Positions 613-39,032 of a DNA stretch of 39,295 nt are shown here, one piece after another. Origin of the DNA: Prasinococcaceae sp. CCMP 1430. Taxonomy: Eukaryota > Prasinodermophyta > Palmophyllophyceae > Prasinococcales > Prasinococcaceae. The number at the start of each line of letters is the position of its first letter. The first letter of the stretch is position 1. Made by a program: the position numbers and the translations under genes. The notes beneath the pieces were generated by a model. The model searched no databases. It was not told where the DNA came from and saw only the letters and a program-made list of their open reading frames with translations. The stretch is from contig RQSC01001082.1 of assembly GCA_013416795.1 (NCBI GenBank), positions 1-39,295 on the forward strand, given 5' to 3'.

Positions 613-3262
613 TCAGCGCGCCGCCGCGTCTGCGAGCGCGTCTCGCGCAGCGGCGATCGCCGCAAGCCCGTCGCGGGCGCGCAACGCCTCCTCGGCGACC
701 CCGCTCGCGGCCATGGCTGCCGCGGCTGCCCACAGCTCCCCGACGACCCGCACGTTGTGCTCCGCTTCGGCGACAGGATCCTCGCGCAGCGGGAAGGTAT
801 CGAAGTAGAGGTGCTCGCGCTCGCCCCGACCGTAGCCCGCGCGCTGCAGCCAGAAGAGGAGCTCCAGCGCTGCCTGCGGGTGCGCAGACGCAAACGCGAG
901 GCCATCCTCGGCGCCCAGGCGGACCGGCGCGTCATTGAGCTGCACGCCAAACAGCGCACGCGCTCCGTGTGCTAGCGCGGCCGACTGTGCGGGGTTCTCG
1001 CCCGCCATGAGCAGGTGGCCGAAGTCGAGCGTCAGCCCGAAGTTGGGCCTGCCGACGCGCCGCACGAGCTCCACGGCGGCGCCCGTGCTCGGCACGAGCG
1101 CGAAGCGGCTCTTCTCATCGGTGGGCTTGAACTCGAGCGACACGCGCACGCGCGGGCCGCACGCGTCGGCAACCGCGCCGTACGCCTCCGCCGCCGCGTC
1201 GAGCGCCGCCGCATAGTCAACCTGCAAATTGTAGTCGTAGCCGTCGAACTGCGGCCAGACCACCAGCTGCGATGCGTTGAGCGCGTGCACCCAGCCGCAC
1301 GCCTCGGCTGCGAGCCGCACGGCGGACGCGCGCACGTCGGCCGATGCGGCGGTGAGCGCGCCGGCGCTGAATGCGCTCTCGGGGAAGCGCATTGCGACAC
1401 CACCCGCGCGGAGCCCCGCAGCACGCAGCGCCGCGAGCACCTCTGCCGCCGCGAGCCCCTCCAGGTGCTGCGGGTAGTTGAGCTCCACCAGCGATAGCCC
1501 CGCCACGCTGGCCTGCCGCGCGATTAAACCAAGCACGCTGCTCAGCGGTTCGGCCCCGCGCCAGAGCTCCGGCCGCGCCCTCATCGAGTTGAGGCGAGAC
1601 GCGAGAAGCGGCAGCGGCGGCGCCGCCGAAGGCGACGGTGAGGGCCACAGCTCGACGTCCGCATCGCTAGGGCCGTCGACACGCTCCTGCTTCTCGTCTG
1701 CGGCGGCACTGTCTGCGCACTCCTCCCACTCCACGGCGGGGGCGGTGTCGGTCGCGCCACCCGCACCGGCGACGGCCAACCCTGCGAGCGCGTAGCACTC
1801 CTCTCGCCGCGGCAGGCTGGGCATCGCTCCGCGCCGCGCCACTGCAATCGCACCTGCGGCTGCGCCGAGGCGCAGCGCGTCGCGGTGCGGGCGGCCCTCA
1901 GCGAGCGCCACGCCAAAGGCGGCGCGAAACGCGTCGCCCGCAGCGGTCGCGTCGACGGCAGCGCCACCACCAGGAGGCCGCAGCGCAGGCTGATGCAGCA
2001 CCACCTCCTCCTTCCCTTCAACCTCTACGCCGCCATGCACCAGGAGCGCGCCTCGATCGCCAAGGGTGACCAGCACAGCGGCGGCGCCCTGTGCGCGCAG
2101 CGCGCGCGCCGCTGCGAGCGCCTCATCTGCAGTCGCTGTTGGCATGCCGTCGGTGAGCCGCGAGAGCTCGCCCTCGTTGGGTGCGACGTAGTCGACGAGC
2201 GAGAGCAGCGTGGGCCCCAGCGCGCGGTCCTCGCCGCCCGCGTCCAGGAGCACCACCGCGCGCTGGTGGAGAGAATCGGCACGGCGAGCCATTCGTTAGC
2301 ACTCGGCACTCCTCCTGTCGCACTCCCATGACGAGGGCACCCCGACAGCCGCGCGTACGCGCCTCTCGCACCTTCCCAGCACGCCGGACACGCTCCTTCA
2401 CAGCAGCCGCGACGATCTCGTTGACGAATTCGGGAATCTCGCGCTGCAGCAGAACGACTGCGCCTGCGCCTGCTATGGCGGCCTCATCGACAGCGTCCGC
2501 GGCGGCCACGCCTGCGGCCTCGGCCTCACTCGCCGTCCACGCCGCGTTGGCCCCGCCGACCACGACGCTCGTCGCCGCGCCATCAGGTTCGAGAAGCACG
2601 TAGCCCTGTCCCGAGCCGACGCCGTTGCCGTCGTGGACGGACCGCCGCAAGTCCACGCCTTCAGCCGTGAGTTTCTCGCGCAGCCATGGCGCGTGCGTAT
2701 CGGAGCCGAAGCGCCCGCAGAACCGCGCGCGCGCGCCCAGCCGTGCTGCGGCCGCCGCCTGGTTGGCTCCCTTGCCGCCGACGGCGAGCGATACCCCGGC
2801 ACCACCATTGCCACCGCTCGAGCCATCGCTTGCCAGCAGCGTCTCCTCCCGCGCCGGGAGGCGCGGCACGGGCACCGTTATGTCGACATTCACCGACCCG
2901 ACCACGTGTACATGGGGCGCGAGCGCGCCAGCGGCGCAAGCGGCCGCGAGGAGCAGCGCGAGCGCGCAGCCGAGCGCGGGCGCGAGTGGGGGGGCGCCGC
3001 TGGTGCAAGCGTGCAGCGCTCCGAAGAAACGCCGGCATCGCGCGCGCCCCCGCGCCGCGGTCGCCGAGGGTGCCGTGCGCGCGCACTGTGACCCCTTCCC
3101 CCATGCTGCTCGTACCGGCACAAGTTCCGGCTGGCTGTTGATAGGATTTCGGGCTCGCCACAGCACACGCACGTGGCGGCGGTGCGCGCGCCCCGTGAGC
3201 GCGCGCGCGAGTTGCATCTGCGTGCGCGTGCGCACACACAGTTGGCGCGCACACATCGCCAA
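613..3262 (-). CDS. Ribokinase (PfkB family) fused to a xylose-isomerase-like TIM-barrel sugar isomerase/epimerase
   Basis: Two exons, 3262-2372 and 2262-613, joined in phase 0 over a 109-bp intron (donor AAG|GTGCGAG, acceptor CTCCACCAG|CGC). The join restores a complete ribokinase fold: GSVNVDITV at the domain start, GGKGANQ substrate motif near residue 162, VAPNEGEL, and VDATAAGDAF near 405 with the catalytic Asp of the usual GAGD motif. From about residue 517 follows a second domain of the AP-endonuclease-2/xylose-isomerase barrel type, with candidate metal ligands in SLEFKPTD, LTLDFGH, VQLND and YFDTFP. Family knowledge: ribokinases phosphorylate pentoses, and the barrel family isomerises or epimerises sugars or sugar phosphates; the substrate is not readable. 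A hydrophobic stretch (ALALLLAAACAAG, about 99-111) just before the kinase looks like a signal or transit sequence, but the only in-frame ATGs (3262, 3217) lie about 80-95 codons upstream, so a 5' exon may be missing. Confidence 0.82.
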
Positions 3263-3365
3263 CTTCTACAGCACGCACGCGCACGCTCGCGGACAAGGAG
3301 GGGGAGGTGAGGGGGTGGGTGAGGTGGGGCAAGAGGGAGACCTCGGAGCTCTCGCCGGAAGCACC
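3263..3365. promoter_or_regulatory. Divergent promoter region, kinase-isomerase / SWEET
   Basis: Only about 100 bp separate the first in-frame ATG of the minus-strand sugar kinase fusion from the SWEET start at 3366. A G-rich tract at 3297-3333 (repeated GGGGG, GTGAGG and GTGGGG blocks) sits inside it, similar in character to tracts in two other divergent spacers of this window. No TATA box is evident. The promoter role is inferred from gene orientation. Confidence 0.45.
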
Positions 3366-4206
3366 ATGGCTCTCGACCACGACAGCTGGCTCCTGCTGTA
3401 CGCCGCCCCCGGCTTGGGTGTGGTGACCTCCAACGCGACGTTCGTCTCTCCGCTCGCGCACGTGCGGCGCGCGCGCGCGAGCGGCGACTTCTCGTCGATC
3501 AACGCCGCGCCATTCGCCGCCATCGTGGCCAACTGCATGGGGTGGTGCGCGTACGCGTTCGGCACGCGCGACTGGTTCGTGTTCTGGTCTAACGCGCCCG
3601 GCGTGCTGCTGGGGCTCTTCTTTGTGTCAAGTGCGATGCAACACACAAAATGCTCGTCGCTGCTCGCGCGCTTGGAGAGGCAGCTCCTCGTGCAGACGGC
3701 GGTGACACTCGTGGGCGGTGCGGTGGCGGCGATCGCGCTCCGCGATGCGGACCGAGCTATGAGCGTTCTCGGCGCAGTCGCCGTGTTCCACCTCCTCGTC
3801 TTCTACTCGGCGCCACTCTCCGATGTCGTGAATATACTGAAGCAGCGCGACTCTTCCAGCCTCCTCTGGCCGCTCATCGCGACCTCGGCCGTCAACGGAT
3901 TACTGTGGGTGAGTGCGCCACGCTTTGAGTGGCGTGCGTGCGTATGCCGGTGCTTGTCTGTGCAGTCTCCGCTGACATGCACGTGCGCGCGCGCAGGTGG
4001 GGTATGGGCTCGCACTGTCTGACTTCTTCATTGCTGGGCCCAACGCTTTTGGCGTCCTGCTGGCAGTGTTCCAGGCGGCGCTCAAGCTGCGCCTCCCGAG
4101 CAGGCCGGCGCGGGCCCTCCCGCGCTCCGCCTCGCAGGAGCCGCTGCAAGTCGTGGCAAACGAGGCGGCCAATGCCTCGGCTTCTTCTCCCGCCTGGCCT
4201 CAGTGA
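3366..4206 (+). CDS. SWEET (MtN3/saliva) sugar transporter
   Basis: Two exons, 3366-3908 and 3997-4206, with an 88-bp intron (donor TGG|GTGAGT, acceptor GCGCAG|GTG, phase 0); the spliced protein is 250 residues, the normal SWEET length. The start ATG sits in a good context (CACCATGG). Two triple-helix MtN3 repeats are visible: the first contains SNATFVSPLAHVRRAR, INAAPFAAIVANCMGW and the following FVFWSNAPGVLLGLFF; the second contains VFYSAPLSDVVNILKQRDSS, WPLIATSAVNGLLW and FFIAGPNAFGVLLAVFQ. SWEETs are seven-helix facilitators moving mono- or disaccharides down their gradient across plasma or internal membranes; the sugar cannot be told here. The short cytosolic tail is Ala/Ser-rich. Its head-to-head neighbour is a sugar kinase/isomerase fusion, suggesting joint use of an imported sugar. 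Confidence 0.93.
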
Positions 4207-4251
4207 CGACCACAGGGCGGCGCGCTGCTGCTCGTGACTGTTGTATGTGGC

Positions 4252-4259
4252 TGTATATT
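4252..4259 (+). promoter_or_regulatory. UGUAUAUU element in SWEET 3' region
   Basis: TGTATATT lies 46 nt after the SWEET stop codon. It matches the core of the Pumilio/PUF recognition element (UGUANAUA) and also contains the UGUA motif used in 3'-end processing. Two other plus-strand genes of the window carry the same core shortly after their stops. Confidence 0.35.
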
Positions 4260-4473: not shown

Positions 4474-6462
4474 TCAGAGGGAGAACCCAGGCGCCGCGAC
4501 CATCCAGTTGGACGCCGCGCGCGGGCGCTGCTGCTGCCGGGGTTGCTGCTGCGCGGGCGGCCACATCTCGTGCGTGTACATGTCGAGTAGCCCGCCCGAG
4601 GCCGAGCCCGCACCCGCAGCGGCGGGTGGCCTCGGGATGGCCACCGCGCTCGACGTGTGCGAGGCGCCGGCAGTCATCGAGTGCGCGTCAAGAAACTCTT
4701 GCATCCCCACCGCGGGGCTCCGCGATGTCCCAGCTCCCTCGATGCTCGCGGGGTTGTCAAAGAACAGACTGGGCGTCCCGCCCCTCCTTGCGGCGCTTGT
4801 CGAGCGCCGCAGGCTGTGCTCGTAGAGTCCGTCGTAATTCTGCTTCCTCGCGCGCACGGAGAGCAAGAGCCCCACGCCGAGAACCACCACTGCACCTGCA
4901 ATGCCACCGGCGATCCCCGCCATCTCGTTCGCGCTCAGGCCCGCGTCCTTCGTGGCCGGGGGGGAGGGGGCGCCTGAAGGCGTGAGCGACAGGCTCGGAG
5001 GGGGTGACGACGGCGGGCTCGGGGGCCGTAACAGCGTCGGTGGCGGGCTCGGGTTTATGTCGACGACCTCGAGGTCGTCGAATATGGGCTCTCCGTCCTC
5101 TCCGACGCCTGAAACCTCCGCCTGGCTAATGATGGCTTCCACCTCCACCCCGGCCGCTTTCCCTGCCTCCTCAAATGCTTGACTAATGGCGTCGGCGTTT
5201 GTAACCGAGGTGCTCACGAAGTCGGTGATGATGTCCACCTCGATGGTCGGCGCCTGCAACACCTCAGCCTCGGCGCCCACCGCTGCAGCCACCGCTGCCG
5301 CATCCGCTGCCGAGTTGGCAACGATGGCTGCTGCTTTGTCGGCCTGGTCTTCTGGGAGCGTCGTCGTGAACTCCACGTCGACACCTTCGCCTTGCAGCAG
5401 GGCGCGTGAGCGCGAGCGCGAGCGCGCGCGCTGGCCGGCCGAGTCGTCGCCCGAAGTGAACGCGAGCTTCGCTTCGACGGACGCCTCGTCGATGCCCTTG
5501 ATCTGCGCGTAGCGGGCCGCCAGATCGGCCGCAGAGACGCCTAAGATCGCCTCTCCGGTGAGTCGCCAGACCTCGCGGATGATGATTGTGACCAGCACAC
5601 TCGTCGAGTCAGGTGACAGGCCCAGTTTGTCGAAGAAACCCTGCATGACATCTGCCACGATGCTGTCGATGGTGCTGACGTCTGCCAGATCGATCTGCAG
5701 GCTCGACTGCACCCGCGTGAGCGTCAGCGGCGGTGGCGGTGGCAGTGACGCCGAGAGTGCCGGAGACGTCGGAGGTGCCGGGGGCGGGCTAGCCTGCAGC
5801 GTGACACATTCACGCGAGTCTCTGTCCCACTCGCAGTGCACGAGCTCAATGCACTGCGCCTTCTTCTGCGCGGACGTGCAGGGCGCCGAGCCGTCGCTCT
5901 CGCCGCCGCTGTCCTCTTCCTTGTTCACTTTCTTCTTCATCTTCTTCGTGTGTTTCTTCGAGGAGCTAGGGGTGGCAGCGTATTCCTCGCCATCGTAGGA
6001 TGTGGAGGTGGCTGCGTATTCCTCAGCATCGTAGGAGGTAGGAGCGGCTGCGTATTCCTCACCGTAGTCGCCACCGTAGCCCATCCGAGGAGTCGTGACC
6101 CCGTAGCCTCCGCGCATGCCCCCATCCTCGGTCGGTGACTCCCCAGGCGGTCGCGTCACAGGTGGCGGTGGTGTCTCGGAAGGCGGCGATGCCGGAGGCG
6201 GTACTGACGGCGAACTCGGTGGAGACGAGGCGACCTTGGATGCGCACGGTCCCTCAAAGACGACCCAGAGGTCGTCCGAGGCGTGGCCGTAGCCGTAGCC
6301 GTAGCCGTAGCCGTAGTTGCCGACTTCACCGTAGCCATAGCCGTAGCCATAGCACTGCGCAGCTGTTGGCGCGACGGCCTGAACCTTGAGCTCAGCAGCG
6401 GCGCCTGTAACGGCCACGGCTACAGCGCCTGCCACGGCGCAGAGCGCACGCGTTGAGACCAT
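4474..6462 (-). CDS. Proline-rich type I membrane / cell-surface protein with Tyr-Gly repeats, function unknown
   Basis: I chose the ATG at 6462 because it opens a clear signal peptide (MVSTRALCAVAGAVAVAVTG); an in-frame ATG at 6558 would only add a basic Ala/Arg stretch. The mature 640-residue chain has, in order: YG dipeptide repeats (about 37-59), a Ser-Pro-rich linker, three imperfect repeats of a Tyr-Asp-Ala/Gly-Glu-Glu-Tyr type unit (about 130-165), a Lys-rich patch, a small Cys region (CTSAQKKAQC...HCEWDRDSREC), another proline spacer, a folded region with a VDVEFTTTLPEDQ stretch followed by many Ala (about 246-454), a third PPS-rich linker, one transmembrane helix (about 514-537, GIAGGIAGAVVVLGVGLLL) and a cytosolic tail ending in a Gln-rich segment. 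This architecture resembles hydroxyproline-rich wall or surface proteins of algae. Intronless. The function is unknown. Confidence 0.72.
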   Translation of the reverse strand: MVSTRALCAVAGAVAVAVTGAAAELKVQAVAPTAAQCYGYGYGYGEVGNYGYGYGYGYGHASDDLWVVFEGPCASKVASSPPSSPSVPPPASPPSETPPPPVTRPPGESPTEDGGMRGGYGVTTPRMGYGGDYGEEYAAAPTSYDAEEYAATSTSYDGEEYAATPSSSKKHTKKMKKKVNKEEDSGGESDGSAPCTSAQKKAQCIELVHCEWDRDSRECVTLQASPPPAPPTSPALSASLPPPPPLTLTRVQSSLQIDLADVSTIDSIVADVMQGFFDKLGLSPDSTSVLVTIIIREVWRLTGEAILGVSAADLAARYAQIKGIDEASVEAKLAFTSGDDSAGQRARSRSRSRALLQGEGVDVEFTTTLPEDQADKAAAIVANSAADAAAVAAAVGAEAEVLQAPTIEVDIITDFVSTSVTNADAISQAFEEAGKAAGVEVEAIISQAEVSGVGEDGEPIFDDLEVVDINPSPPPTLLRPPSPPSSPPPSLSLTPSGAPSPPATKDAGLSANEMAGIAGGIAGAVVVLGVGLLLSVRARKQNYDGLYEHSLRRSTSAARRGGTPSLFFDNPASIEGAGTSRSPAVGMQEFLDAHSMTAGASHTSSAVAIPRPPAAAGAGSASGGLLDMYTHEMWPPAQQQPRQQQRPRAASNWMVAAPGFSL
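6284..6352 (-). repeat. In-frame hexanucleotide repeat coding for Tyr-Gly
   Basis: Two arrays of a 6-bp unit (plus strand GTAGCC/CCGTAG), split by a short GEVGN-coding spacer, encode 4 and 5 consecutive Tyr-Gly pairs in the surface protein just after the signal peptide. Units vary slightly at third positions. Such slippage-prone arrays commonly vary in length between strains. Confidence 0.85.
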
Positions 6463-6982: not shown

Positions 6983-8197
6983 ATGCGCGACGAAACGCAT
7001 GCGCGCGCGAAAGCGCGGCGCATTCCCCATTTCCCGCCGAGGGGGCGCACAGGTGGCGCTGCGGGCGTGCGGGCGGGGGCGCGCGCGGGGGGGCGGGCGG
7101 GGGGCGCTACCTACCCGAGTATATCGAATACCACCGCGCACTTGACCGCGCCGGCGGCGGCCGCGGCCGCCGACTGGGCGGCGGCGCGCTCGGCGCCGTA
7201 CTTCGGCAGCGCCCTCGCCATCGTGAAGGACGCCGTCGGCCCCGTGCGCGGGCGCAAGGTTGTAGACGCCGGCTGCGGCGCCGGCGAGCTCACGCAGGAG
7301 ATGGCCGTCGAGGCGGGCGCCGAGCACGTGTGGTGCGTGGAGCCCGCGGCGCACGTGATGCGCAACACCATCGACCCGTCGCTCGCCGGCACGCTCGTGA
7401 CGTACGCGACGACTGGAGCCGAGCGCATGCCTATCGCCACCGCCACCACCGACGTCGTGCTCTTCCTCAACTCGCTGCACCACGTGCGCAAGAAAAACAT
7501 GAAAGCCGCGCTCTCCGAGGCGAGCCGCGTGCTGCAGCCCGAGGGCCACGTCGTCGTGGTGGAGCCGGTTTTGCCGAACGACGGCAGCGCGTACGCCCAG
7601 CTGCTCGGCCGCGGCATCGGCGAGGACAAGGAGATAGTGGAAGCTGAGCGCGCGCTGCGCGCCTTCACCGAGCTGCCCAAGGGGCTGTACATCGAGTCGG
7701 AGGCGTACGCACGGACCGAGAGGGAGTACGCGGGCTACGACGAGTGGCGCGACGCGGTCATTCTTGCCGACAAGTCGCGCCGGCGCGTGCTGGAGCAGCG
7801 TGATGGCGAGCTGCGCGCGCTGTTCCTCGAGGCAGCCACTTTCCGGTCGCGCGCCGCCGTCGTCAGGGCAAAGGCCAGGGCCGCCGCGAGCGCCGCGGAG
7901 CGCCGGGACGAGGACGACCTCGACGCGGATGACGCCAGCTTCGACGAGTTCGGCGTGCGCAGGCCCATCTCGGACGAGGAGGTCGCCGAGGCAGCGGCAG
8001 CGGCGGAGACAAGGGCGAGCGCCGCCTACGAGTCCGCGGCGGGGAGCGACGACGACGACGACGACAACGACGACGTCGGCGTTTACGTGCTCCCGCACTA
8101 CAGCAAGGTGTACGTGCTGCGGCAGGTCGAGGGCGCGGGCGAGCGTGACTGGTGGACAGTCGAGGCGCGCGACGGCGAGGGGCTGGGCGAGCTCTAG
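6983..8197 (+). CDS. Class I SAM-dependent methyltransferase
   Basis: 404 residues from the ATG at 6983; the frame stays open to 6839, so the start is uncertain. Motif I is VVDAGCGAGELT (about residue 92-103), followed by the acidic ribose-binding position in VWCVEP, the TTDVVLFLNSLHHV strand-4 motif and VLQPEGHVVVVEP. This order is the Methyltransf_11/UbiE-like fold. The second half departs from the family: a basic Ala/Arg helix, an acidic stretch with six consecutive Asp codons (a GAC repeat near 8048-8065) and a final VYVLPHYSKVYVLRQVEG segment ending close to the stop. The methyl acceptor cannot be deduced. The leader is basic and Gly/Ala-rich and might be an organelle transit peptide (inference). 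Intronless. Confidence 0.8.
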   Translation: MRDETHARAKARRIPHFPPRGRTGGAAGVRAGARAGGRAGGATYPSISNTTAHLTAPAAAAAADWAAARSAPYFGSALAIVKDAVGPVRGRKVVDAGCGAGELTQEMAVEAGAEHVWCVEPAAHVMRNTIDPSLAGTLVTYATTGAERMPIATATTDVVLFLNSLHHVRKKNMKAALSEASRVLQPEGHVVVVEPVLPNDGSAYAQLLGRGIGEDKEIVEAERALRAFTELPKGLYIESEAYARTEREYAGYDEWRDAVILADKSRRRVLEQRDGELRALFLEAATFRSRAAVVRAKARAAASAAERRDEDDLDADDASFDEFGVRRPISDEEVAEAAAAAETRASAAYESAAGSDDDDDDNDDVGVYVLPHYSKVYVLRQVEGAGERDWWTVEARDGEGLGEL

Positions 8198-10441: not shown

Positions 10442-10447
10442 ATGTGG
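10434..10447 (+). promoter_or_regulatory. 14-bp element AATTTCGGATGTGG, copy 1
   Basis: This 14-mer occurs identically at 31503-31516, upstream of the NUDT22-like gene, on the same strand. The ATG inside it is the first ATG of the ankyrin frame. An exact 14-base match is not expected by chance in 39 kb. Its role (initiator element, promoter motif or repeat remnant) is unknown. Confidence 0.4.
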
Positions 10448-11089
10448 CGCGCGCGCGCACTCGGTCCATATCCGACCGCGCACCGGCGCGCGCCGCGCGC
10501 GCGCGCGCGCGACAGCCGCGGGCGTGAGCGCGCTCGGGAGCGGCGACGCGGGGACGGAGCGGAGGCGCCATTGCGTGCGCTGCAGGCGGACGTCTACACG
10601 CCTATACACTTCGCAGCAGGAGGCGGCAGCGCCGACTGCGTGCGGCTGCTGCTCGAGGCGGGCGCCGACATGGAGAAGGCCACCGCCGACGGCCACACGC
10701 CTATGCACGCCGCAGCAGAAGGCGGCAGCGCCGAATGCGTGCGGCTGCTGCTCGAGGCGGGCGCCGACAAGGACAAGGCTGATTTCGACGGCGACACGCC
10801 TATTCACGTCGCAGTTCAATGGGTCCGCGCCGAATGCGTGCGGGTGCTGCTCGAGGCGGGCGCCGACAAGGACAAGGCTAATGTCGCCGGCAACACGCCC
10901 TTGCACCTCGCCGGAGCACGCGGCCGCGCCGACAACGTGCGGGTGCTGCTCGAGGCGGGCGCCGACGCATCCGCCCGCAATGCCGACGGCCGCACGGCGC
11001 TCCAACTCGCCGAGGAATCTGCCCACCGGTGGGAAGCGCGTGACCGCAAAGGGGCCACCGCGGCGCTGCTCAGACGCGCGCACACCTAA
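10442..11089 (+). CDS. Ankyrin-repeat protein
   Basis: 215 residues. After a basic low-complexity leader (about 1-48) come four canonical 33-residue ankyrin repeats and a C-terminal partial one. Each carries the TPxHxA turn (YTPIHFAAGGGSADCVRLLL, HTPMHAAAEGGSAECVRLLL, DTPIHVAVQWVRAECVRVLL, NTPLHLAGARGRADNVRVLL) and LLEAGAD, ending in GRTALQLAEES. Ankyrin repeats bind protein partners; no enzymatic domain is attached, so the job is unknown. The repeats are very similar at DNA level, suggesting recent internal duplication. The leader before residue 48 does not look like structured protein, so the true start may be in an upstream exon. Confidence 0.8.
   Translation: MWRARALGPYPTAHRRAPRARARDSRGRERARERRRGDGAEAPLRALQADVYTPIHFAAGGGSADCVRLLLEAGADMEKATADGHTPMHAAAEGGSAECVRLLLEAGADKDKADFDGDTPIHVAVQWVRAECVRVLLEAGADKDKANVAGNTPLHLAGARGRADNVRVLLEAGADASARNADGRTALQLAEESAHRWEARDRKGATAALLRRAHT
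10600..11000 (+). repeat. 99-bp tandem DNA repeats coding ankyrin units
   Basis: Four units of about 99 bp share a near-identical core, GTGCGGCTGCTGCTCGAGG or GTGCGGGTGCTGCTCGAGG followed by CGGGCGCCGAC, at about 10640, 10739, 10838 and 10937. The even spacing equals one ankyrin repeat. The second and third cores both run into GACAAGGACAAGGCT, indicating recent unit duplication or gene conversion. Confidence 0.85.
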
Positions 11090-11124
11090 CAACGTTGCAT
11101 GTATGTCGACTCTCTCGTTAGTCA

Positions 11125-11228: not shown

Positions 11229-11807
11229 TCACTCGCCGAACAGCCTCTTCCTGATGACCGGCAGGTTGGTGTCGTGCGCGACGGCCAGCCGCTCGTCGAG
11301 CGTGTTGGCGCACACGATCTTGCCGTCCATGGACGCCACCACCACGCCGCCCGCGCACGACTCGCCCTCGAAGCCCGGCGCGGCCGCCGCCGGCAGGAAG
11401 GCCTCCGTGTTGACCACCACGCTCGGCGGCGCGCAGCCGGCGGCGCGCGCGTACTGGGCGGCGGCCTTGGGCGCCGCCGCCTCCACGAGCGCGAGGTCGG
11501 CCCTCCTGCAGCGCACCTGCATGGCGGGCTCGGCCACCTTGGTCATCGCCTGCGCGGTGAGGCTGACCAGCAGCTGCGAGTACTTGGCCTGGTCGGCCGT
11601 GATGGTGGCCAGCGTGGCGTGCGCCGCGCCGATGGCGGCGCGGATGCACTCCTCGCGCGCGCGCAGCACGCGCAGCCGCGCCTGGTTGACCTTGGTGGAG
11701 TGCTCGATGCGCTTGCGGCTCTCGATCTGCGCCTCCTTGCGCTCGAACTCGCGCCGGATGCGCTGCTTCTCCGACTCGACCATCTGCAGCTTCTCGATGT
11801 TGAACTC
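11229..11807 (-). CDS. V-type H+-ATPase subunit E, first exon missing
   Basis: 192 residues of V-ATPase subunit E, from EFNIEKLQMVESEKQRIRRE through NQARLRVLRAREE to the C-terminal VVVASMDGKIVCANTLDERL and IRKRLFGE. Subunit E forms peripheral stators with subunit G, linking the V1 head to the V0 sector of the proton pump on vacuolar and other endomembranes. The exon begins right after a good acceptor (C-rich tract, CCGCAG|GAG, phase 0, at 11808). Roughly 33 N-terminal residues, normally containing an Ile-Arg/Gln-Gln-Glu-Ala-type helix, are therefore missing. I could not find that first exon on the minus strand up to 14120, because that DNA is occupied by the kinase on the other strand. The gene is either interleaved with the kinase, broken, or cut by a misassembly. 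Confidence 0.88.
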   Translation of the reverse strand, partial: EFNIEKLQMVESEKQRIRREFERKEAQIESRKRIEHSTKVNQARLRVLRAREECIRAAIGAAHATLATITADQAKYSQLLVSLTAQAMTKVAEPAMQVRCRRADLALVEAAAPKAAAQYARAAGCAPPSVVVNTEAFLPAAAAPGFEGESCAGGVVVASMDGKIVCANTLDERLAVAHDTNLPVIRKRLFGE

Positions 11808-11830
11808 CTGCGGCCGGGCGCGGTCGGCGT

Positions 11831-13972
11831 GTGTTGTGCGAGCGGGGGGGCGATGGCGGGGGCCTGGCGACGACGCTCGCCGGGGTCGCCAAGGCCGCCG
11901 CGCTCAAAGCGCTCGACCTCGCGGACGAGCAGGCGAAGAGCAGGGCCGCCCGCGGCGACGCTGACGGAGGGGGCCTGAACGGGCTGAACCCGCTCAAGAC
12001 TCTCGAGGAGAGGCGCGCGAGGGAGCGCGAAGAGGAGCGCAAAAGGCGCGAGCAGGAGCGCGAGGCCGCCGCCGCGCGCGAGGCCGCCGCCGAGGCGACC
12101 GCGGATGGCACAGGCGCGACCGTGTCCCCGAGCGGCGGCAGAAGCTCGGATGCCGGGGCGCCCCAGCTGTCAGCGCGCGAGGAGCGCTGGGAGCGCCGGC
12201 GCAGGGAGAAGGAGGGGCTGCCCCAGTTCTCTTCGGACCTGCAAGGGGGCGCGGGCGAGGGCGCGAGCGACGTTGACAGCCAATCTGAGAGTGGCAGCGA
12301 GAGTGACTCGCGCGCCGCCGCCATCGCTGCCGCGGAGGATGCCGCGCTCGCGCACATGGGTCTCCGGCGGTGCGAGCGCATCGGGCGGGGCGCCGTCGCC
12401 GACGTCTTCAGCGCCGTGCCTCTGAGCGATGACGACGATGCGGAATTGCTGGGTGGCGGCGCGGACGTGACGGTCCGCGCGCAGGTGCACGAGAGGTGGA
12501 AGCCGTCTCGCGGAGGAGAGTACGCGGTGAAGATTTTGCGTGCGTCGGGGGGCGCGTCTGCGCTCAAGGATATGCAGGGGGAGATGGCGGCGTCTGGGCG
12601 CATCGGCAAGCACAAAAACGTCGTGCACCTCCTGCACGGCCGCGAGGTGCGCGTGCGGATGCCCTCCGACCGAGGCCGCAAGACGATCATCCTTGTGCTC
12701 GAGCTGCTGCGGCCGGCGACGCCGCTTAACGACGCAATCGCCAAACGCGAGTCCGAGCCGTTCGACACGCGCAAGGTGGCGCTGGACATCGCCGAGGGCC
12801 TGTGCGAGACGCACCGGCGAGGGTACGCACACAGAGACGTGAAGAGTCCCAACGTGCTTCTCTCGATGGATCCGCGCCAGCGTCGCCTGGTGGCCAAACT
12901 CTGCGACTACAGCTCGGCAGCACCGACTGAGGACGCGCTGCCCACGGTTGCGCCCAAGGAGAAGGAGAGCACGCGATCGAGTGGCGCCATGGGCATTCTC
13001 GAGAGCCTCGCCGACGCATTCACCGGCTCGGAGGGCTGGCGCCCCGTGGGCTCGCTCCTCTGGATGGCGCCTGAGATGATGTCGCCTCCCGAGGAGGGCT
13101 CTGCGCTGAGCCTCGACAAGGCCGCCTACGGCAAATGCGACGTGTATTCCTTCGGGGTGGTGCTGTGGGAGCTGCTCGCGGGGCGGCTCCCGTGGGTGGA
13201 GGAGGGCATCTCGGACGCTACCACTGGCAAGGACGAGCTGCGGCGGCGCGTCGTGCAGGAAGGTGAGCGGCTGCCCGTGCCGACCGACGGCGTCGGCGAA
13301 TCGCTGCTCAAGCTGCTCGACGACTGCTTTCTGGAGGACCCCACGCAGAGGCCTAGCATGCAGGAAGTGCTGCGGCGGCTGAAGGCCACCCGCAACGCCG
13401 ACTGGGGTCCGAGGGTCGGTGAGGCAGCAGCCGCGGCGAGCGCGATCGACACCAAGGAGACATTGTTGGCATCGGGCGCATTCACCATCGTCGAGGCCAG
13501 CAAGAGCAAGGACAGCCCAGCGGTGGTGCTCACCGACGCTGTGGTGACGCTCGGGCGCTCGCGGTCCTGCACATTTGGCATTCGTGATGGCCGTGCGTCG
13601 CGTACTCATGCCGAGATGCGCTTTGTGCTTGATGAGGAGCTCTGGCCCGATAACGTAGATGGTACGAACGGGCGCAACCTATCTGACAGGGGCGACGTCA
13701 TCGAGAAGGTTGAGTGGGCCAAGGTGAAGAAAAATGCCGACGGCAGCCTCGAGTTTACCGACTCGCCGAGCGACGATGGGGCCGTGGCAGGTGCGTCTCC
13801 AACGGGCTACTTCATCGTGTGTGACAACAGCAGCAATGGGACGTCACTCAACGGCAACAGGATTCGCAAGGGGATGTGGCGGCGCCTGGCTACTGGCGAC
13901 ACGCTCAAGATCGGGCGCACGCAGCTTGAGTTCCTGGTTGATGAGGACGCGCTGCGCAAGGCCCTCGGCTGA
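11831..13972 (+). CDS. Protein kinase with C-terminal FHA domain (TKL-like), 5' end unresolved
   Basis: The open frame gives 713 residues, but 11831 is a GTG and the first in-frame ATG (12357) falls at the kinase domain itself; an in-frame stop at 11801 closes the frame upstream. A first exon is therefore probably missing. Residues about 35-90 are a charged coiled coil. The kinase domain (about 176-520) has IGRGAVADV, the lysine in EYAVKIL, HRDVKSPNVLL, the APE motif in WMAPEMM and DVYSFGVVLWELLAG. The Mg-binding motif is DYS (KLCDYSSA) instead of DFG. An acidic insertion separates the P-loop from the lysine. The FHA domain (about 557-710) shows LGRSRSC, GRASRTHAEM and NSSNGTSLNGNRI, with a roughly 60-residue insertion between the second and third. 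FHA domains bind phosphothreonine, so this kinase probably docks to phosphorylated partners or to itself. Confidence 0.85.
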   Translation: MLCERGGDGGGLATTLAGVAKAAALKALDLADEQAKSRAARGDADGGGLNGLNPLKTLEERRAREREEERKRREQEREAAAAREAAAEATADGTGATVSPSGGRSSDAGAPQLSAREERWERRRREKEGLPQFSSDLQGGAGEGASDVDSQSESGSESDSRAAAIAAAEDAALAHMGLRRCERIGRGAVADVFSAVPLSDDDDAELLGGGADVTVRAQVHERWKPSRGGEYAVKILRASGGASALKDMQGEMAASGRIGKHKNVVHLLHGREVRVRMPSDRGRKTIILVLELLRPATPLNDAIAKRESEPFDTRKVALDIAEGLCETHRRGYAHRDVKSPNVLLSMDPRQRRLVAKLCDYSSAAPTEDALPTVAPKEKESTRSSGAMGILESLADAFTGSEGWRPVGSLLWMAPEMMSPPEEGSALSLDKAAYGKCDVYSFGVVLWELLAGRLPWVEEGISDATTGKDELRRRVVQEGERLPVPTDGVGESLLKLLDDCFLEDPTQRPSMQEVLRRLKATRNADWGPRVGEAAAAASAIDTKETLLASGAFTIVEASKSKDSPAVVLTDAVVTLGRSRSCTFGIRDGRASRTHAEMRFVLDEELWPDNVDGTNGRNLSDRGDVIEKVEWAKVKKNADGSLEFTDSPSDDGAVAGASPTGYFIVCDNSSNGTSLNGNRIRKGMWRRLATGDTLKIGRTQLEFLVDEDALRKALG

Positions 13973-21107: not shown

Positions 21108-22157
21108 ATGTCCTTGGTGCGCCCGGCGCCGGGCGCTGCCACAGCGCGTGGCGCTGCGCATGCTGCGCCCGCAATGGTGGCGGGCGCGCGTCGGCTGGGC
21201 GCGCTCGCACTGCTGTGGGTGGCCGTGCTCGCAGCGCTCGGCGCGGGGCGCGTGGCGGCGTTCGGCGCGGGCGACTTCGTGCCGTGTGCGCGACGCGCGC
21301 AGTTCCATGGCAAGCGCACGCAATGGCTCGACCTGCTCGGCCGTCACTGCCCGCGCTTCGGCGCGGCGGCGAGTGCGGCGATGCCGCTCGAGATGCCCGA
21401 GGACTGGAAGCAGGATGACACGTACAAGGTCTCCATGAGCTTCGGTGAGAGGCGCCGCGATCAGTGCGCGTGCTACAACCAGCAAGCACCGGGCTCCGGC
21501 GCAGCACGCCACGTCTGCTGCGCCTCTTTGGTCGCCGCGCGTGCGTGCTTCGGCACGCGCTCTGCACAGGCTCGGGGCTGTGGCGTCGTCTGCGTGCTGA
21601 CCCGCCCGCTCTGGTCGGTTGTGCCTTTGAATCACCATCGTTCTGACTGTTACCGCAACAACTGACTCGCGGCGTCAATCACAGCGCACGATCGCTTCCA
21701 GACCCCGTGGTTGGCGGTGATCGGCCCCGGGCTCACCCACCTGCCGTTGGTGGACGTGGTGCTGACGCACTCGGGTGGCGAGCTACGCTCTGTCAGCGCG
21801 CGGCTGTACGAGCTTGAAGACTCTTTCCCTGCCCTCGCACGCCACCCGGAGGTTGCAGAGCACTACCGCAACGTGAGCCACTGGCCCAAGCACCTGCTCG
21901 TGCACTACCGGTGGATTGAGGACGTGGAGGTCGATGCCGCAGGCGGTATGTTTACGCTGCTGGGCGTTGGCGCTGTGCTGGCGACGGTGGTGATGGGGGC
22001 AGTGGTGCTCGAGAGCAGGCACCAGCTTGTGCGGCTTGCGGCCGACGTGTCGGCGCCGGGCGGGGGGGCATCGGCTGGCGGCGGCACATTTGCAGGCGAC
22101 AGCAGCATGACGAGCGGCATGAGCAGGAATACAGGGGGTGCGCACAAGGCGGACTAG
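21108..22157 (+). CDS. Conserved type I membrane protein of unknown function
   Basis: Two exons, 21108-21444 and 21685-22157, with a 240-bp intron (donor TTCG|GTGAGAG, acceptor AATCACAG|CG, phase 1), give 269 residues. A second in-frame ATG at 21174 starts a cleaner signal peptide (MVAGARRLGALALLWVAVLA) and may be the real start. The lumenal part contains DFVPCARRAQFHGKRTQWLD, LLGRHCPRFG, YKVSMSF, TPWLAVIGPG and VSHWPKHLLVHYRWIEDVEV, then one transmembrane helix (MFTLLGVGAVLATVVMGAVV) and a Gly/Ser-rich cytosolic tail. I recall plant proteins with a similar FVP-RRAQ-HG...W-D-LG-HCP and HWPK-LLV-Y-W pattern, all uncharacterised, so I give no function. It follows PEX3 on the same strand by about 230-300 bp. 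Confidence 0.8.
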
Positions 22158-22230: not shown

Positions 22231-24630
22231 TCACCGAGACGACGAGCGGCGGCGTGACCTGCTCTCTTTGCGATCTGAGTGCGAGTGCTTGTGCCTGCCC
22301 CTGTGACGTTCCTTGCGCTCATCGTCGCGATCACGCGCAGAATCTGCCCCTCTGCCATCGCGCTCGCGCTCGCGCTCGCGCTCGCGCGACCTTCCACTAT
22401 CATGGTCGCGATCACGGTCGCTGCGCTTGTGCTTGTGGCTACGCCGGCGATCGGGGCTCCGGCTTCGGCTCCTGCTGCGGCTGCGGCGGTGTCTGCGCTC
22501 GTGCCTGTCGCTGCTGCGCTCACGATCTCTCTTGTGGCGCTTGTCGCTGCTGCGCTCGCGTCCACGCCGCGCCGAAAGCTCCTTGATGATGCGCAGAGCC
22601 TCCTCACGGCTGCTCACGCGCGTCGACAGAAGTGCGTCCAGAGCGCGGTCACCATCCTGCAAGGGGCTGTCGCCCCCATCTCCATCCAAGGCCGCAGCGG
22701 CGCCAGCCGCAACATCGGCTGCTCCTGCTGGCCCCGGCACAGGGGGTGGCACGGGGTCGTTCCCGTCATCCACCAGCAGGTCGTATCCCTCCGTACCGCC
22801 TGTTTTAGCATACGTGTTATGTATTTGGAAGCGCTGCAGGTACAGAGGATCGTCTATGGATGCGATGGGAGCGTTGCTTGCCCCGGGCAAGCTGCCACCC
22901 CCCTGGCCTCCCATGGCGTCTACGAGGGCAACACGTGGGCGGGGACGCGAGCGCGTGCACGTGACACACGGGGTTGTCAGAATTCTGGTACGCGCATGCG
23001 CACGCACGGGAGCCAGCTCGGCGAGGACGCGAGCGGAGACATGCGCACATCCCGACTAGCCATGCACTCGACAGGCTAGGGGTGCCGCGCGTTGACACGC
23101 ACCACCGCCTCCGCCGGTCTTGGGATCGCCGCTCGCGACCAGGTTGTTTGGGTCTACGCGCGCAAGTGCGCGTGCATCGCCGTGTGTAAGGGGCGGTGCA
23201 TGTCAGCTGTTGCAAACAAACTCATCGATAGCCTCTAGTACCGAATAAAAGCGCGCACGCGCACGTGCGGACCTCCGCGCCCGCCTGCACTCACCCTTGT
23301 CGGTGCCGTCAGACTGCGACACTACGCGCATTGAGCACGCGATCTTCAACCTGCCCTGCTCGTCTGTGCCGACGCCGATGACCTTCACGTACACCGACTC
23401 GCCTGTCTTTGCCACCTCTTGCAGCGCCTCAATCTTCTCCTCATCTGTCGCCCCTCGATCCAGTCCTAGGTAGGAACTCACCTGGCTGATGAAGACAAGC
23501 CCGTGCTTGCGGTAGCCGGACATAGAGACGAACAAACCGAAGGGGCGCACCGAGGTGACCGTCGCCTGGTGGATGCTCCACAGCGGCGGCGGTTCGTCGC
23601 TGCCGACGCCTCCTCCGCCTGCACCCGCGAGCGCATTGCTTGGATCGAGATCGGTGCCGTCCTCCTGTGAGACAGCCTTCATCGAGAGCGCTATTCGTTC
23701 GCCGTCCACGCGGACAACCTTCACCCAGCACTCCTCGCCCTCCGCAATGATGAGGCGCAGCTTGTTGACCTTCCGCTCGTCGGCCACGCGAAGAGCGGCG
23801 GCCGCCTCGGGCGTCGCGCCCTTGGGTCCGCCAGGGCCGCCCTCCACATCCGGGTCCCCGTCAAGCCGCTCGCTGACCTGCGAGCAGTGGACGAGGCCGT
23901 CCTTCGAGTAGCCCGGCATGCGAACGAACACGCCAAACGGCCGCACGCTGCGCACGGTGCCGCGGTGTATCGAGAGCGGCTGCGGCAGTCGCACCTCGCG
24001 CGGCGGCTGCGGCGCTCGCGCGTGCGGTGGCGCGCCGCTACCGGCTCCTGGCGGGGGCGGCGCACCCCAACGCGAGCGTCGCACCTGCTCGGCCGTCAGC
24101 TCAGGCACGCCCCATGGATTGCTCGCTGCTGGCTGTGGCGGCGGCGGAGGTGGCTGGCCGTGCCCAGGTAGAGGCACACTTGGAGGGGGCGGGGGCGGCG
24201 GGGGCTGGCCGTGACCCGCCCGGAGCGCCATCATCGAAGGGGGCGCGGGTGGTGGCTGCTTTCCGGGCGCTGTGGCGGGCTGCTGCTGCTGCTGCTGCGG
24301 CTGCGGCGGCAGCCGTGGCGGGCCCCAGCGTGATACGTGGGCTGGTGTTGCCTGAGGCGGCGGGGGCGGCACGCCCGCAGGTGCAGGCGCGGGGGGTTGC
24401 GGCGGCTGCGGCGGCGGCGGTGGGGGTGGCGGCGGCGAGGCGGCGGGGCGGTTGTGCGTCGGCAGGTGCGACAGCTGCTGCGGCGGCGGAGGTTGCACTC
24501 CGCTGCCGCTACCGCCGTCACTGTCGCTGCCATCGTCGAGCGCCCGGCGTCGGTGGCCGCGACCAGCGCGCCGCGCTCTGAACGTCGGTGCGGCAGCGGC
24601 AGGGGCGCCGGCACCTTCAGTGGGTGCCAT
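22231..24630 (-). CDS. Tandem S1-domain RNA-binding protein with RS-rich tail (ZCCHC17/pNO40-like)
   Basis: Exons 24630-23295 and 22919-22231 join in phase 1 over a 375-bp intron (donor AAGG|GTGAGT, acceptor CCTCGTAG|AC), giving 674 residues. The first 200 residues are Pro/Gln-rich. S1 domain 1 (about 219-318) reads SIHRGTVRSVRPFGVFVRMP and ends IALSMKAVSQEDGTDLDPSN; S1 domain 2 (about 349-443) reads SIHQATVTSVRPFGLFVSMS and ends KIACSMRVVSQSDGTD. The end signature SMK-V-Q--GTDLDP is typical of ZCCHC17/pNO40. The second exon adds IDDPLYLQRFQIHNTYAK and about 110 residues of Arg-Ser/Arg-Asp/Arg-Glu repeats with KHKR patches, as in splicing or nucleolar RNA factors. No zinc knuckle is present. 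A role in pre-mRNA splicing or ribosome biogenesis is inferred. An ATG at 24708 is an alternative start. Confidence 0.82.
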
Positions 24631-25742: not shown

Positions 25743-25755
25743 GTGTAAACTAGCA

Positions 25756-31653: not shown

Positions 31654-33434
31654 ATGGCCAGGCTCAGAAGGACCGCCGACGCGGAGGCAGGCGCCGCTGA
31701 GGACGATCCAACCGAGCAACCAGCTCATCGCGGGGGGAGAAGAGCCAAGGCTGGGCGCGAGGGGGAAGCTGAGGCCGAGGACGAGCGCGCAGCCCGGAGG
31801 GTGGCAAGGGGCGCGTCGGCCTCGTCGGAAAGAGCGGCCGCGAAGGCGACGGGCGACGTGGGGGCGTTGGGCGTGGACGATGGCGAAATGATGTTTGAGT
31901 ACGACCTCCTGCTGGCGGCCCCGAGGGGCGCGCGGCTGCGAGCGGCCTTGTCGAACGAGCACGCGCGCGTGCCGCGCGGCAGCACGGAGGCCGACATGGC
32001 GTCCATCGACGCAGTCTGGGCGGCGCGTGTGGCGAAGCAGCCATCGTTGTACGATGCGCCAAAGTTTCGCCTGGCGGGGTGCAGCGTTGCGCGGGGTAGC
32101 TCACGCGCGGCCCCGGCGACCGTCACAGTGCACCTCGGCCTGACGTCGTACAAAGAGTACCTCGGAACCAACTGCGCCCCCTCCGACGGAGATGCCGATG
32201 GGAACGGTGGTGCTGGTGATGCTGGTAGTAGCAGTGACCGCCACAGGGGGGCTGACGGCTGTGCGGAGGCCAGCGGCGGTCGGAGACCAAAGATCCCGCG
32301 CGAGCACCTCGGCGGCTGGCGCGGATGGCTCGCAGAGCCGCACCGCCGTTGGGACGAACCGGGCCTGCCAGCCTTCGCCTTTGCATCGGCCGTCGGCGGC
32401 GTCGCGTGCTTCTCTGCGGGCGTGGATGAGGAGAGCGCGTCGTACAGACACATGAGCGATAGTTTGGGAAACGGAGCCATCGTCGAGACGATCGACAACG
32501 TGCGTGCGCATGTCCTGTTCAGCTCAATCCCATTGCACGAGTCGTCAACACGTCTCACCACCTGTACTCGCGCGCGCACACACAGCCCAAGCGCGCAGCC
32601 GCCACCGCCCTAGCCCTGCTTGAAGCACGCTGACTTCTGGCGCGCGCTCTCCCGCACCTTCATTTTGGACGACTGAACCTTCGCCGCGACACTCAGCACG
32701 TCCTCCTGTTGCGGCGGGGCACAGATGTTGGCGAGGCGCCCGGCCTCCTGGTGTTTCCGGGGGGACATCCGGAGCCCGAAAACGTGCGCAGGCCGACGAG
32801 CGGTGGAGTCGACCCAGCGGTGCCTGATGACGACCGCCTCGCCGCGCGTGCGACGGACGAGCCAAGGGAGAGCGCAGAACCCGTCAGTGGGGCAGCTATG
32901 GATGCGAACGTTGCGGACGGCGCTGTCGGTGACGTGCCCATGCAGGATGCTGATACACGAGCGGGAGGGACTGCGGGCGCGCGTGAGAGCCCGGAGGTGG
33001 GAACTCTCGCCGCAGCGATTGCGAGGGACGGCGCTGACAACGCCGCGAGTGGCAGCGGGTGGGACGAGCAAGTGACCGAGGAGCTCTATGACAGCATGCT
33101 CCGCGAGGTGCACGAGGAGACAGGCCTGCCGCGCGCGGTGCTCAGTGCCCCTCGCTTCATCGGCGCCGCCCGACGCCGCGAGAATGTCCGCAGCGGGCTC
33201 TTCTTCCACATCGAGGCCCGGGTGACTGCTGCCCAGGCTACAGTCGCATTCAAGGACCGACAGGACCGATTCGAGGCTCTCGAGCTGCACTGCGTGCGCG
33301 TGGAGGAGCTCCCGGCGCTCGTCGGCGACGGGACGCGCGTCATGCCGGGCTGCCACATGGGCGCCGCCAAGCTCTTTGAGTACGTTCTGTGGGAGCGCGC
33401 CAAGCACGGCAAGGGCGCCTGGCTCGATCTGTAA
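31654..33434 (+). CDS. NUDT22: NUDT22-like Nudix hydrolase
   Basis: Exons 31654-32499 and 32697-33434 join in phase 0 over a 197-bp intron (donor GACAAC|GTGCGT, acceptor ACACTCAG|CAC), giving 527 residues. The start ATG is in the context GCCATGG. The N-terminal NUDT22 signature is clear: AVWAARVAKQPSLYDAPKFR and LGLTSYKEYLGTN (about 159-171). After SDSLGNGAIVETIDN, the splice restores HVLLLRRGTDVGEAPGLLVF and PGGHPEPE. The Nudix box is split: PGGHPEPE at about 303-310 is separated by roughly 100 Asp/Ala-rich residues from a canonical REVHEETGL (about 417). Animal NUDT22 hydrolyses UDP-glucose and UDP-galactose; the same substrate is plausible here but not shown. The protein is longer than human NUDT22 (about 300) because of acidic and Gly/Asp-rich insertions. 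Confidence 0.87.
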
Positions 33435-33698: not shown

Positions 33699-34267
33699 TC
33701 ACGCGAACGAGAGGACCTCGATCTCGAAGACGAGGCGCGAGTTGGGCATGATGCCCCACGCGGGGAAGCCGCCCGAGCCGTAGGCGTAGTCCGGCGTGCA
33801 GTCGAGAGTGGCGACTTCGCCGAGCTCCATCCCCAGAACGCCCTCGTCCCAGCCCTTGATCACGCTGCCGGTGCCAACGTTGAACGTGAACGGCTGCACG
33901 GGGGTGGCGCGTCGGGGGCAACAGGTCAGCGCCGGCGCCGGCGCCGGCGTTGGCGCCGCGCTGCGCGCCGCGCGCGGGTGGGGCCTCGCACCTGCTGACC
34001 CGGATCCTTGGTGCTCCAGAACTTCTCCTTGAGGTTGTTGTTCTTCCCGTAGCCTAAGGGGTTGCGCGCGGCGGCGGCGGCGAGCGGGCGAGCACGCGCG
34101 GTCAGCGTCAGCGCCTGCGCGGCGGCGGCGGCGGCGGCGCCTCCCATCCTCCCCCCTCCCCCTCGCCCAGCCGCGCACGCACCGGTGCAGTGCACCGTGA
34201 CGGCCTGGCCTTTCTTGGGCAGGGCGCCCGCCTGGCCTGGCTTGATCACGGTCTTGGTGACGCCCAT
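33699..34267 (-). CDS. FKBP12-type peptidyl-prolyl cis-trans isomerase
   Basis: Three exons, 34267-34183, 34053-33992 and 33893-33699; introns of 129 and 98 bp with donors ACCG|GTGCGT and CAG|GTGCGA, acceptors CCCTTAG|GC and CGTGCAG|CC. The spliced protein is 113 residues, exactly FKBP12 size: MGVTKTVIKPGQAG, GQAVTVHCTGYGKNNNLKEK, FWSTKDPGQQPFTFNVGTGS, VIKGWDEGVLGMELGEVATL, DYAYGSGGFPAWGIMPNS and LVFEIEVLSFA. It keeps the pocket Trp (KGWDEG) and Tyr (DYAYG) and follows the plant FKBP12 pattern with FWSTKDPGQQPF. These cytosolic enzymes speed prolyl isomerisation and are the rapamycin/FK506 receptors. No targeting sequence. The introns contain GCC/GGC microsatellites (about 33929-33950 and 34118-34140). 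Confidence 0.95.
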
Positions 34268-34732: not shown

Positions 34733-35875
34733 ATGTGCGAGGCCGGCTACGAGCCCTTCGTCTTCGCGCCGATCGATGATGCCGTGGCATCCACAGGGCC
34801 GCGCGAGGCTGCCGAGACCGCGCTGTTGGCCTTCGACAAGCGCTGGGGCACCCACGGCACAGTCGCCGGCGAGTCTGCAACGATCGCCGCCGCTCGCGCG
34901 CGCCAGGGCGGCTACGGCGACTTCGACCCGGAGACGTCGATCACCGTGCGCCTCAACGCACAGCTGAGCCGCTGCAGCGTCCACAGCGTCAACCTCGATC
35001 GCGAGCGTGCGGACGTCGCCGGCGTGGTGGCGCTCGACGGCGTGTGCACCGATGCCATGCGCGAGGAGCTGCTCACCTGGATGACCGCGCCTGGTTGGGA
35101 CCACTCCAAGGGGCCGCCCACCGACAAGTGGGAGCGGGCGACGCGGGACCAGGTGGGCGACGAGGAGGCGCCGCCCTCGTGGGGGCTCAAGGCAAAGGTG
35201 CTCGACGAACTCGCCGACCCCGAGAGGTGCCCGCCGGCGGCGCTCGAGGTGATCAGGCGTGTGGCCGCGCTCTACCCTGAGTTCGACGTGGACATGATGC
35301 CGGCGTCCGCGATGGCCGGACAGATGGCCCTCATGGAGGACGAGGACGGATCGGAGGGCGAAGGGGACGGTGCAGACGCCAGCGCAAGCGGCCCGTGCAT
35401 CCGCTCTCACGTTGGCAACGCGAGCATGGCCGGCGACACCTACGCCTGGCACCGTGACATGGACCCGAGCGCCATGTTCTTTGACTCGCCCTGGGCGGAG
35501 CGCTACGGATGCTACGCCAACCGGGAGATGCGCAAGCCCTACCTCGTCAGCGCGCTTCTCTACCTCGACGAGGACTGGCCCGATGCGTGGGATGCGGAGA
35601 CGCTCTTCTACGACGAGTCCAACGGCAGCGAAGGGGCGTGCGGGCTCTTCTCGAGGCCCGCGCCGGGGCGGATCGTGCTGATGGACCAAGACGTGAAGCA
35701 CAGGGTGAGCCCACCCTCGGCCAACGCGAAGCGCCCGCGCTACTCGCTCGTGTGGAAGCTCGCGTTCTACCCGCATCCGGGTGGCGCGGGCTACGGCGAC
35801 AAGGACACCACCGAGGCCACGCGGCGGGGCCACTACGCGCTCACTCGCAAGCGCTGGGGCAAGCCAGGCCTCTGA
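34733..35875 (+). CDS. 2-oxoglutarate/Fe(II)-dependent dioxygenase-like protein
   Basis: 380 residues from the first in-frame ATG (MCEAGYEPFVFAPIDDAV). The double-stranded beta-helix motifs are present: HxD as YAWHRDMDPSAMFF (His about 240, Asp about 242), the distal His in DQDVKHRVSPP (about 323) and, 12 residues later, the Arg of RPRYSLVWKLAF that binds 2-oxoglutarate. PYLVSALLYLDEDW and FSRPAPGRIVLMDQ are the flanking strands, as in prolyl-4-hydroxylase-type proteins (2OG-FeII_Oxy_3-like). Upstream, GVVALDGVCTDAMREELLTW is the helix commonly found before this fold. The C-terminus (GHYALTRKRWGKPGL) is basic. The substrate is unknown: protein, lipid and small molecule all remain possible. 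The frame continues upstream without ATG, so the N-terminus is probably incomplete. Confidence 0.8.
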   Translation: MCEAGYEPFVFAPIDDAVASTGPREAAETALLAFDKRWGTHGTVAGESATIAAARARQGGYGDFDPETSITVRLNAQLSRCSVHSVNLDRERADVAGVVALDGVCTDAMREELLTWMTAPGWDHSKGPPTDKWERATRDQVGDEEAPPSWGLKAKVLDELADPERCPPAALEVIRRVAALYPEFDVDMMPASAMAGQMALMEDEDGSEGEGDGADASASGPCIRSHVGNASMAGDTYAWHRDMDPSAMFFDSPWAERYGCYANREMRKPYLVSALLYLDEDWPDAWDAETLFYDESNGSEGACGLFSRPAPGRIVLMDQDVKHRVSPPSANAKRPRYSLVWKLAFYPHPGGAGYGDKDTTEATRRGHYALTRKRWGKPGL

Positions 35876-36068
35876 GCTCTCACTCTCGTGGCGGCTGCCC
35901 CACGGGGCTCGATGCAAGCGAATGCGCGCCTAGCTTCCTCGCTCGCGGCCGCCCAGCGTAGCGTTTGGAAAGGACTTCAAGTACGTTCCAAGAGCACATA
36001 AGATCGTTTCTTTTCTTGTCAAGAAGGCCAAATTACACACACGCACCGATCGCTCTGCGCTCTTCATT

Positions 36069-39032: not shown

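What the first reader, a model, noticed from the sequence alone, without database searches (positions are those of the whole stretch)
613..39032. Nearly perfect strand alternation of neighbouring genes
Gene order and strand read - + - + - + - + - + + - + - + - + -. Of 17 adjacent pairs, 16 switch strand; the only exception is PEX3 followed by the membrane protein. With random orientation, 16 or more of 17 would occur with probability 18/131072 (about 1.4 in 10,000). The genome may be organised as head-to-head pairs with shared promoters and tail-to-tail ends.
Basis: partly seen in the sequence, partly recalled or inferred. Interest (0 to 1): 0.75.

Follow-up and report, generated by a model that had tools for sequence, protein, structure and literature searches.

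The report
Alternating gene strands, green alga
In this compact green-algal genome, neighbouring genes really do tend to sit on opposite DNA strands (16 of 17 pairs here, about 72% in sampled stretches elsewhere against 50% by chance), a mild, already-described style of genome packing that is unusually complete in this window.

Summary
Sixteen of the 18 genes carry a Pfam domain on the called strand. All 13 adjacent pairs in which both genes are domain-supported switch strand.

The key check was outside the window. In about 150 kb of unmasked DNA from six contigs (one of them the rest of the window's own contig), 44 of 61 adjacent pairs switch: 72%, 95% CI 59-83%, p = 3.6e-4 against 50%. Among Pfam-supported pairs it is 23 of 34. 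So alternation is a real, moderate tendency in the sample. The window is a lucky stretch of it: P(>=16/17) is about 0.03 at 72%. It is not near-perfect genome-wide.

The genome (24.5 Mb, ~68% GC) belongs to a flagellate green alga. Convergent gaps are short (median 205 bp). Divergent gaps (624) are no longer than tandem gaps (830), although they hold two promoters. That fits shared promoter regions but does not prove them.

The same tendency is published for the brown alga Ectocarpus, where divergent partners are not co-expressed. Most likely this is ordinary compaction. Co-regulation is untested.

The parts
613..3256 (-). gene 1: PfkB-family kinase fused to xylose-isomerase-like TIM barrel
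   Evidence: Pfam PF00294, PF01261; HMM model; 5' end uncertain
3366..4206 (+). gene 2: SWEET (MtN3_slv) sugar transporter
   Evidence: PF03083 (on the ORF 2604-4022); exact start uncertain
4474..6462 (-). gene 3: proline-rich protein with a hydrophobic N-terminus and a TM-like segment, no Pfam domain above cutoff
   Evidence: single ORF, coding score 190
6983..8197 (+). gene 4: methyltransferase
   Evidence: PF08241
8425..9747 (-). gene 5: RNA polymerase I subunit A49
   Evidence: PF06870, 8.9e-46
10442..11089 (+). gene 6: ankyrin-repeat protein
   Evidence: PF12796, 1.3e-34
11229..11783 (-). gene 7: V-ATPase subunit E (N-terminal residues lie in an unmodelled 5' exon)
   Evidence: PF01991, 5.5e-49; PDB V-ATPase E, 3.8e-44
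11797..13972 (+). gene 8: protein kinase with FHA domain; first exon 11797-11835 doubtful
   Evidence: PF00069, PF00498
14120..19085 (-). gene 9: bromodomain/SET/SDG2_C histone methyltransferase
   Evidence: PF00439, PF00856, PF19633
19341..20876 (+). gene 10: PEX3
   Evidence: PF04882 over cut-off
21174..22157 (+). gene 11: putative signal-peptide/single-TM membrane protein; with PEX3 the only same-strand neighbour pair
   Evidence: HMM score 84; hydropathy; no Pfam hit
22231..23919 (-). gene 12: S1-domain, RS-rich RNA-binding protein; 5' end uncertain, may extend towards 24729
   Evidence: PF00575
24983..25742 (+). gene 13: DUF498 protein
   Evidence: PF04430
25756..31077 (-). gene 14: CFAP43 axonemal protein
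   Evidence: PF25828, 1.7e-114; best PDB match FAP43, 9.5e-113
31654..33434 (+). gene 15: NUDIX protein, two exons read as one gene
   Evidence: PF00293; intron donor AAC|GTGCGT
33699..34267 (-). gene 16: FKBP-type peptidyl-prolyl isomerase
   Evidence: PF00254
34733..35875 (+). gene 17: 2OG-Fe(II) oxygenase
   Evidence: PF13640
36069..38946 (-). gene 18: valyl-tRNA synthetase; start uncertain, the ORF runs to 39065
   Evidence: PF00133, 1.4e-148; PDB ValRS, 1.8e-207

Best explanation
This is a stretch of a compact green-algal nuclear genome in which adjacent genes are biased toward opposite strands (about 70% of neighbours rather than 50%). Convergent pairs abut with very short 3' gaps, and divergent pairs sit on one intergenic promoter region. 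The most likely cause is compaction plus selection against same-strand neighbours, which need both a terminator and a separate promoter between them and risk read-through. The strand pattern, the excess outside the window and the short convergent gaps are shown. That divergent genes share a regulatory region is inferred from gap lengths, and the selective cause is inferred. The window's 16/17 is a chance-high sample of this ~70% tendency.
For: 16/17 in the window and 44/61 outside (CI 59-83%), stable over HMM priors. Domain-supported adjacent pairs: 13/13 in the window, 23/34 outside. 49 of 60 sampled gene models outside have a Pfam hit on the called strand. Median gaps: convergent 205, divergent 624, tandem 830 bp. 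With separate promoters a tandem gap should equal the average of convergent and divergent gaps, but it is longer (mean excess 388 bp, 95% 130-640); a shared promoter region predicts it within error (47 bp, -241 to 337). (CG)n runs per gap: divergent 1.93, tandem 2.17, convergent 0.35. The same combination (opposite-strand neighbours, divergent gaps shorter than tandem) is published for Ectocarpus (PMC7784034).
Against: The sample outside is 61 pairs from six contigs, not the whole genome. At the strictest score threshold the excess outside drops to 19/33 (58%), partly because skipping genes lowers it by construction. Some large tandem gaps hold weak ORFs that may be missed genes; counting them shrinks the tandem gap (mean 646 bp) and weakens the shared-promoter inference. 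Divergent versus tandem gap lengths alone do not differ significantly (p = 0.27). No transcript data.
Confidence: 0.75

Rival explanations
1. Chance and selection of the example: genome-wide orientation is random and this window was noticed because it is extreme.
For: The window was picked by eye; some sampled stretches are near 55-60% (C2 7/12, C6 5/9, C12 rest 3/5).
Against: Pairs outside the window, not chosen for orientation, switch in 44/61 (p = 3.6e-4), and domain-supported pairs in 23/34 (p = 0.029). All pooled: 60/78.
Confidence: 0.1
2. Gene-calling artefact: merged tandem genes or antisense shadow ORFs in a 68% GC genome inflate alternation.
For: High GC gives many long antisense ORFs; a few low-score calls lie opposite real genes or inside tandem gaps.
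Against: 16/18 window genes and 49/60 sampled models have domains on the called strand; no antisense ORF tested had one. Counts barely change when introns are penalised heavily (47/65 to 47/67). With low-score genes removed the rate is 72-74% at thresholds 35-45.
Confidence: 0.08
3. Functional head-to-head pairing: divergent partners are kept together because a bidirectional promoter co-regulates them.
For: 7 of 8 divergent gaps in the window are under 700 bp, the eighth is 1063 bp; gap lengths fit a shared promoter region.
Against: Divergent partners in the window have no evident functional link (RNA Pol I A49 with an ankyrin protein; SET methyltransferase with PEX3; CFAP43 with a NUDIX protein). 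In Ectocarpus transcript levels of divergent partners do not correlate (r about 0.04-0.05; PMC7784034).
Confidence: 0.1

Closest known systems
Ectocarpus (brown alga) genome organisation (PMC7784034)
   Same: Adjacent genes tend to opposite strands; divergent gaps shorter than tandem gaps (409 against 2293 bp there). 61.7% of genes flanking 5' intergenic regions are in divergent pairs, against 71% of 5' ends here outside the window.
   Different: Ectocarpus is an unrelated brown alga and its tendency is described as unusual compared with genomes of similar size; here the host is a compact 24.5-Mb green-algal genome, the sample is small and there are no chromatin data.
[quoted passage not shown] PMC2871058)
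   Same: Departure from the roughly 50% co-directional pairs seen in most species.
   Different: The text read does not state the direction or size of each departure, and the supplement was not readable here.
Dinoflagellate unidirectional gene blocks (PMC5177918, PMC7789003)
   Same: Same statistic, orientation changes between neighbours.
   Different: Opposite extreme: 0.15-2.3 changes per 10 genes there, about 7 per 10 here.

Membership tests
Genomes with opposite-strand neighbour bias (Ectocarpus-like organisation) | Adjacent genes on opposite strands more often than 50% | tested here: met
   44/61 outside the window, p = 3.6e-4; 16/17 inside
Genomes with opposite-strand neighbour bias (Ectocarpus-like organisation) | Divergent intergenic regions significantly shorter than tandem ones | tested here: inconclusive
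   median 624 against 830 bp, Mann-Whitney p = 0.27
Genomes with opposite-strand neighbour bias (Ectocarpus-like organisation) | Divergent starts share one nucleosome-depleted region | not testable with these tools
   needs MNase or ATAC data
Bidirectional promoter gene pairs | Divergent genes with starts under 1 kb apart | tested here: met
   72% of 29 divergent CDS-to-CDS gaps are under 1 kb; transcription starts not mapped
Bidirectional promoter gene pairs | Partners co-regulated from a common element | not testable with these tools
   no expression data
Strictly alternating genome | Nearly all neighbours switch strand genome-wide | tested here: not met
   17 of 61 pairs outside are same-strand

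The most novel reading that the evidence does not exclude
The whole genome has a strand-switch rate of 70% or more, possibly among the highest known for a nuclear genome, with divergent pairs built on a single shared promoter region as the default transcription unit, so that this alga is a natural test of selection against tandem genes.
Probability: 0.3. Interest if true: 0.5.

Novelty: new member of a known kind. Interest (0 to 1): 0.3.

Why it matters
Gene orientation is near random in most eukaryotes, so a lineage with a clear bias is a handle on what constrains gene order: promoter sharing, read-through between tandem genes, or compaction. The effect is moderate and of a type already described, so it is a useful extra case rather than a surprise.

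Tried and rejected
A first guess of a high-GC fungus was dropped when CFAP43, LHC proteins, PsbR, CDPK-type kinases and SDG2_C appeared. Prasinoderma coloniale was considered (25.3 Mb, 69.8% GC; PMC7455551) but not established: it is 41% coding, this sample is roughly two thirds coding. tRNA genes hidden in gaps: none found. A directional promoter motif: only GC-rich and palindromic (CG)n strings stood out, and in the window most divergent gaps lack them. Merging of two genes in 31654-33434 was considered; the intron has a consensus donor and the two exons read as one NUDIX protein, so it was kept as one. Literature searches found no report on orientation bias for a green alga; one paper says Ostreococcus promoters have fewer bidirectional elements than yeast (PMC2850359).

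Full report
What was claimed. The window is G000:C12:1-39295; the genome has 24.5 Mb in 145 contigs.

Check of the observation. The window is 68% GC and holds 231 stop-to-stop ORFs of at least 100 codons on both strands, so strand calls need care. I wrote a strand-symmetric HMM (coding Markov model, introns, starts, stops), trained it first on window ORFs and then on all sampled DNA. Sixteen of the 18 genes have a Pfam domain on the called strand. The two without are 4474-6462 and 21174-22157. About ten long antisense ORFs scanned alongside had no domain. Every adjacent pair in which both genes are domain-supported switches strand (13 of 13). The order is unchanged for gene priors from 1e-4 to 0.05 and intron priors from 1e-5 to 3e-3.

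Is it more than chance? The proper test is elsewhere in the genome. The session allowed about 210 kb of other sequence, about 150 kb of it unmasked and usable, from C1, C2, C3, C6, C9 and the rest of C12. With genes of coding score 35 or more, 44 of 61 adjacent pairs switch (72%, CI 59-83%, one-sided p = 3.6e-4): 23 convergent, 21 divergent, 17 tandem. Of 60 gene models scanned there, 49 had a Pfam hit on the called strand, and domain-supported adjacent pairs switch in 23 of 34 (p = 0.029). Stretches differ (C9 13/15, C3 15/19, C2 7/12, C6 5/9, C12 rest 3/5) but not beyond sampling error (heterogeneity p = 0.10). Against a 72% background 16 or more of 17 has probability 0.03. So there is a real moderate bias in the sample, and the window is a high draw from it. 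Raising the score threshold to 80-100 lowers the rate to 58-63%; this is expected when genes are skipped, but it also means that small genes carry part of the signal.

Whose genome. Light-harvesting chlorophyll-binding genes are present. Plant-type families include SDG2_C, PsbR, calcium-dependent kinases with EF hands, and DUF2499/DUF3593. V-ATPase E is closest to entries 36qu and 7uw9 (I take the latter to be a plant enzyme, from memory), and CFAP43 is closest to 8glv FAP43, which I take, from memory, to be Chlamydomonas. CFAP43 and CPC1/SPEF2 point to a flagellate stage. This is a flagellate green alga; the species was not established. Splice donors are mostly GTGCGN.

How it probably works. 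Convergent gaps are very short (median 205 bp; in the window 13-267 bp). Divergent gaps have a median of 624 bp and tandem gaps 830 bp. If every gene brought its own promoter and terminator, a tandem gap would be the mean of the convergent and divergent gaps. It is longer than that by a mean of 388 bp (95% 130-640). If a divergent pair shares one promoter region, the expected tandem gap is the divergent gap plus half a convergent gap, and the data agree (difference 47 bp, -241 to 337). (CG)n runs, typical of upstream regions here, occur about equally per divergent and per tandem gap (1.93 and 2.17) and rarely in convergent gaps (0.35). This supports one regulatory region per divergent pair, but missed small genes in tandem gaps would weaken it: including low-score genes gives tandem mean 646 bp. 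On this reading alternation saves intergenic DNA and avoids same-strand read-through. That cause is inferred, not shown.

Comparison with what is known. In a survey of 64 eukaryotes most have about 50% co-directional pairs, with Monosiga, Cyanidioschyzon, Thalassiosira and Cryptococcus named as less random (PMC2871058). In the brown alga Ectocarpus adjacent genes have a relatively strong tendency to be on opposite strands. There 61.7% of genes at 5' intergenic regions are in divergent pairs, divergent gaps under 600 bp share one nucleosome-depleted region, and the partners' transcript levels are not correlated (PMC7784034). The like-for-like figure here is 71% outside the window. So the kind of thing is known; this is a further, perhaps stronger, case in a green alga. 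Dinoflagellates are the opposite extreme (PMC5177918, PMC7789003). One paper cites in silico evidence for fewer bidirectional elements in Ostreococcus than in yeast (PMC2850359), a reason not to assume co-regulation.

Verdict. Observation confirmed, and chance alone is unlikely. 'Nearly perfect' applies to this window only. Shared promoters are plausible; co-expression is untested and not to be assumed.

Noticed in passing
window 613-3256 (-): A PfkB-family sugar kinase and a xylose-isomerase-like TIM barrel (AP_endonuc_2) lie in one uninterrupted reading frame, a two-enzyme fusion.
   Followed up: no
window 11229-11900: V-ATPase E (-) and an FHA kinase (+) start almost back to back; the V-ATPase match begins at profile position 29, so its 5' exon must lie within or beyond the kinase's 5' end, i.e. 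overlapping divergent 5' ends.
   Followed up: partly
L016:3643-4953 (-) and L016:5578-6795 (+): Two neighbouring divergent genes both carry DUF3593 and DUF2499, an inverted duplicate pair.
   Followed up: no
upstream regions of sampled genes: CGCGCGCG occurs in 42 of 76 upstream 250-bp stretches against 15 of 78 downstream, yet most divergent gaps of the window lack such runs.
   Followed up: partly
introns in all sampled stretches: Splice donors are mostly GTGCGN (38 of 73) rather than GTGAGT, with about 0.7 intron per gene.
   Followed up: no
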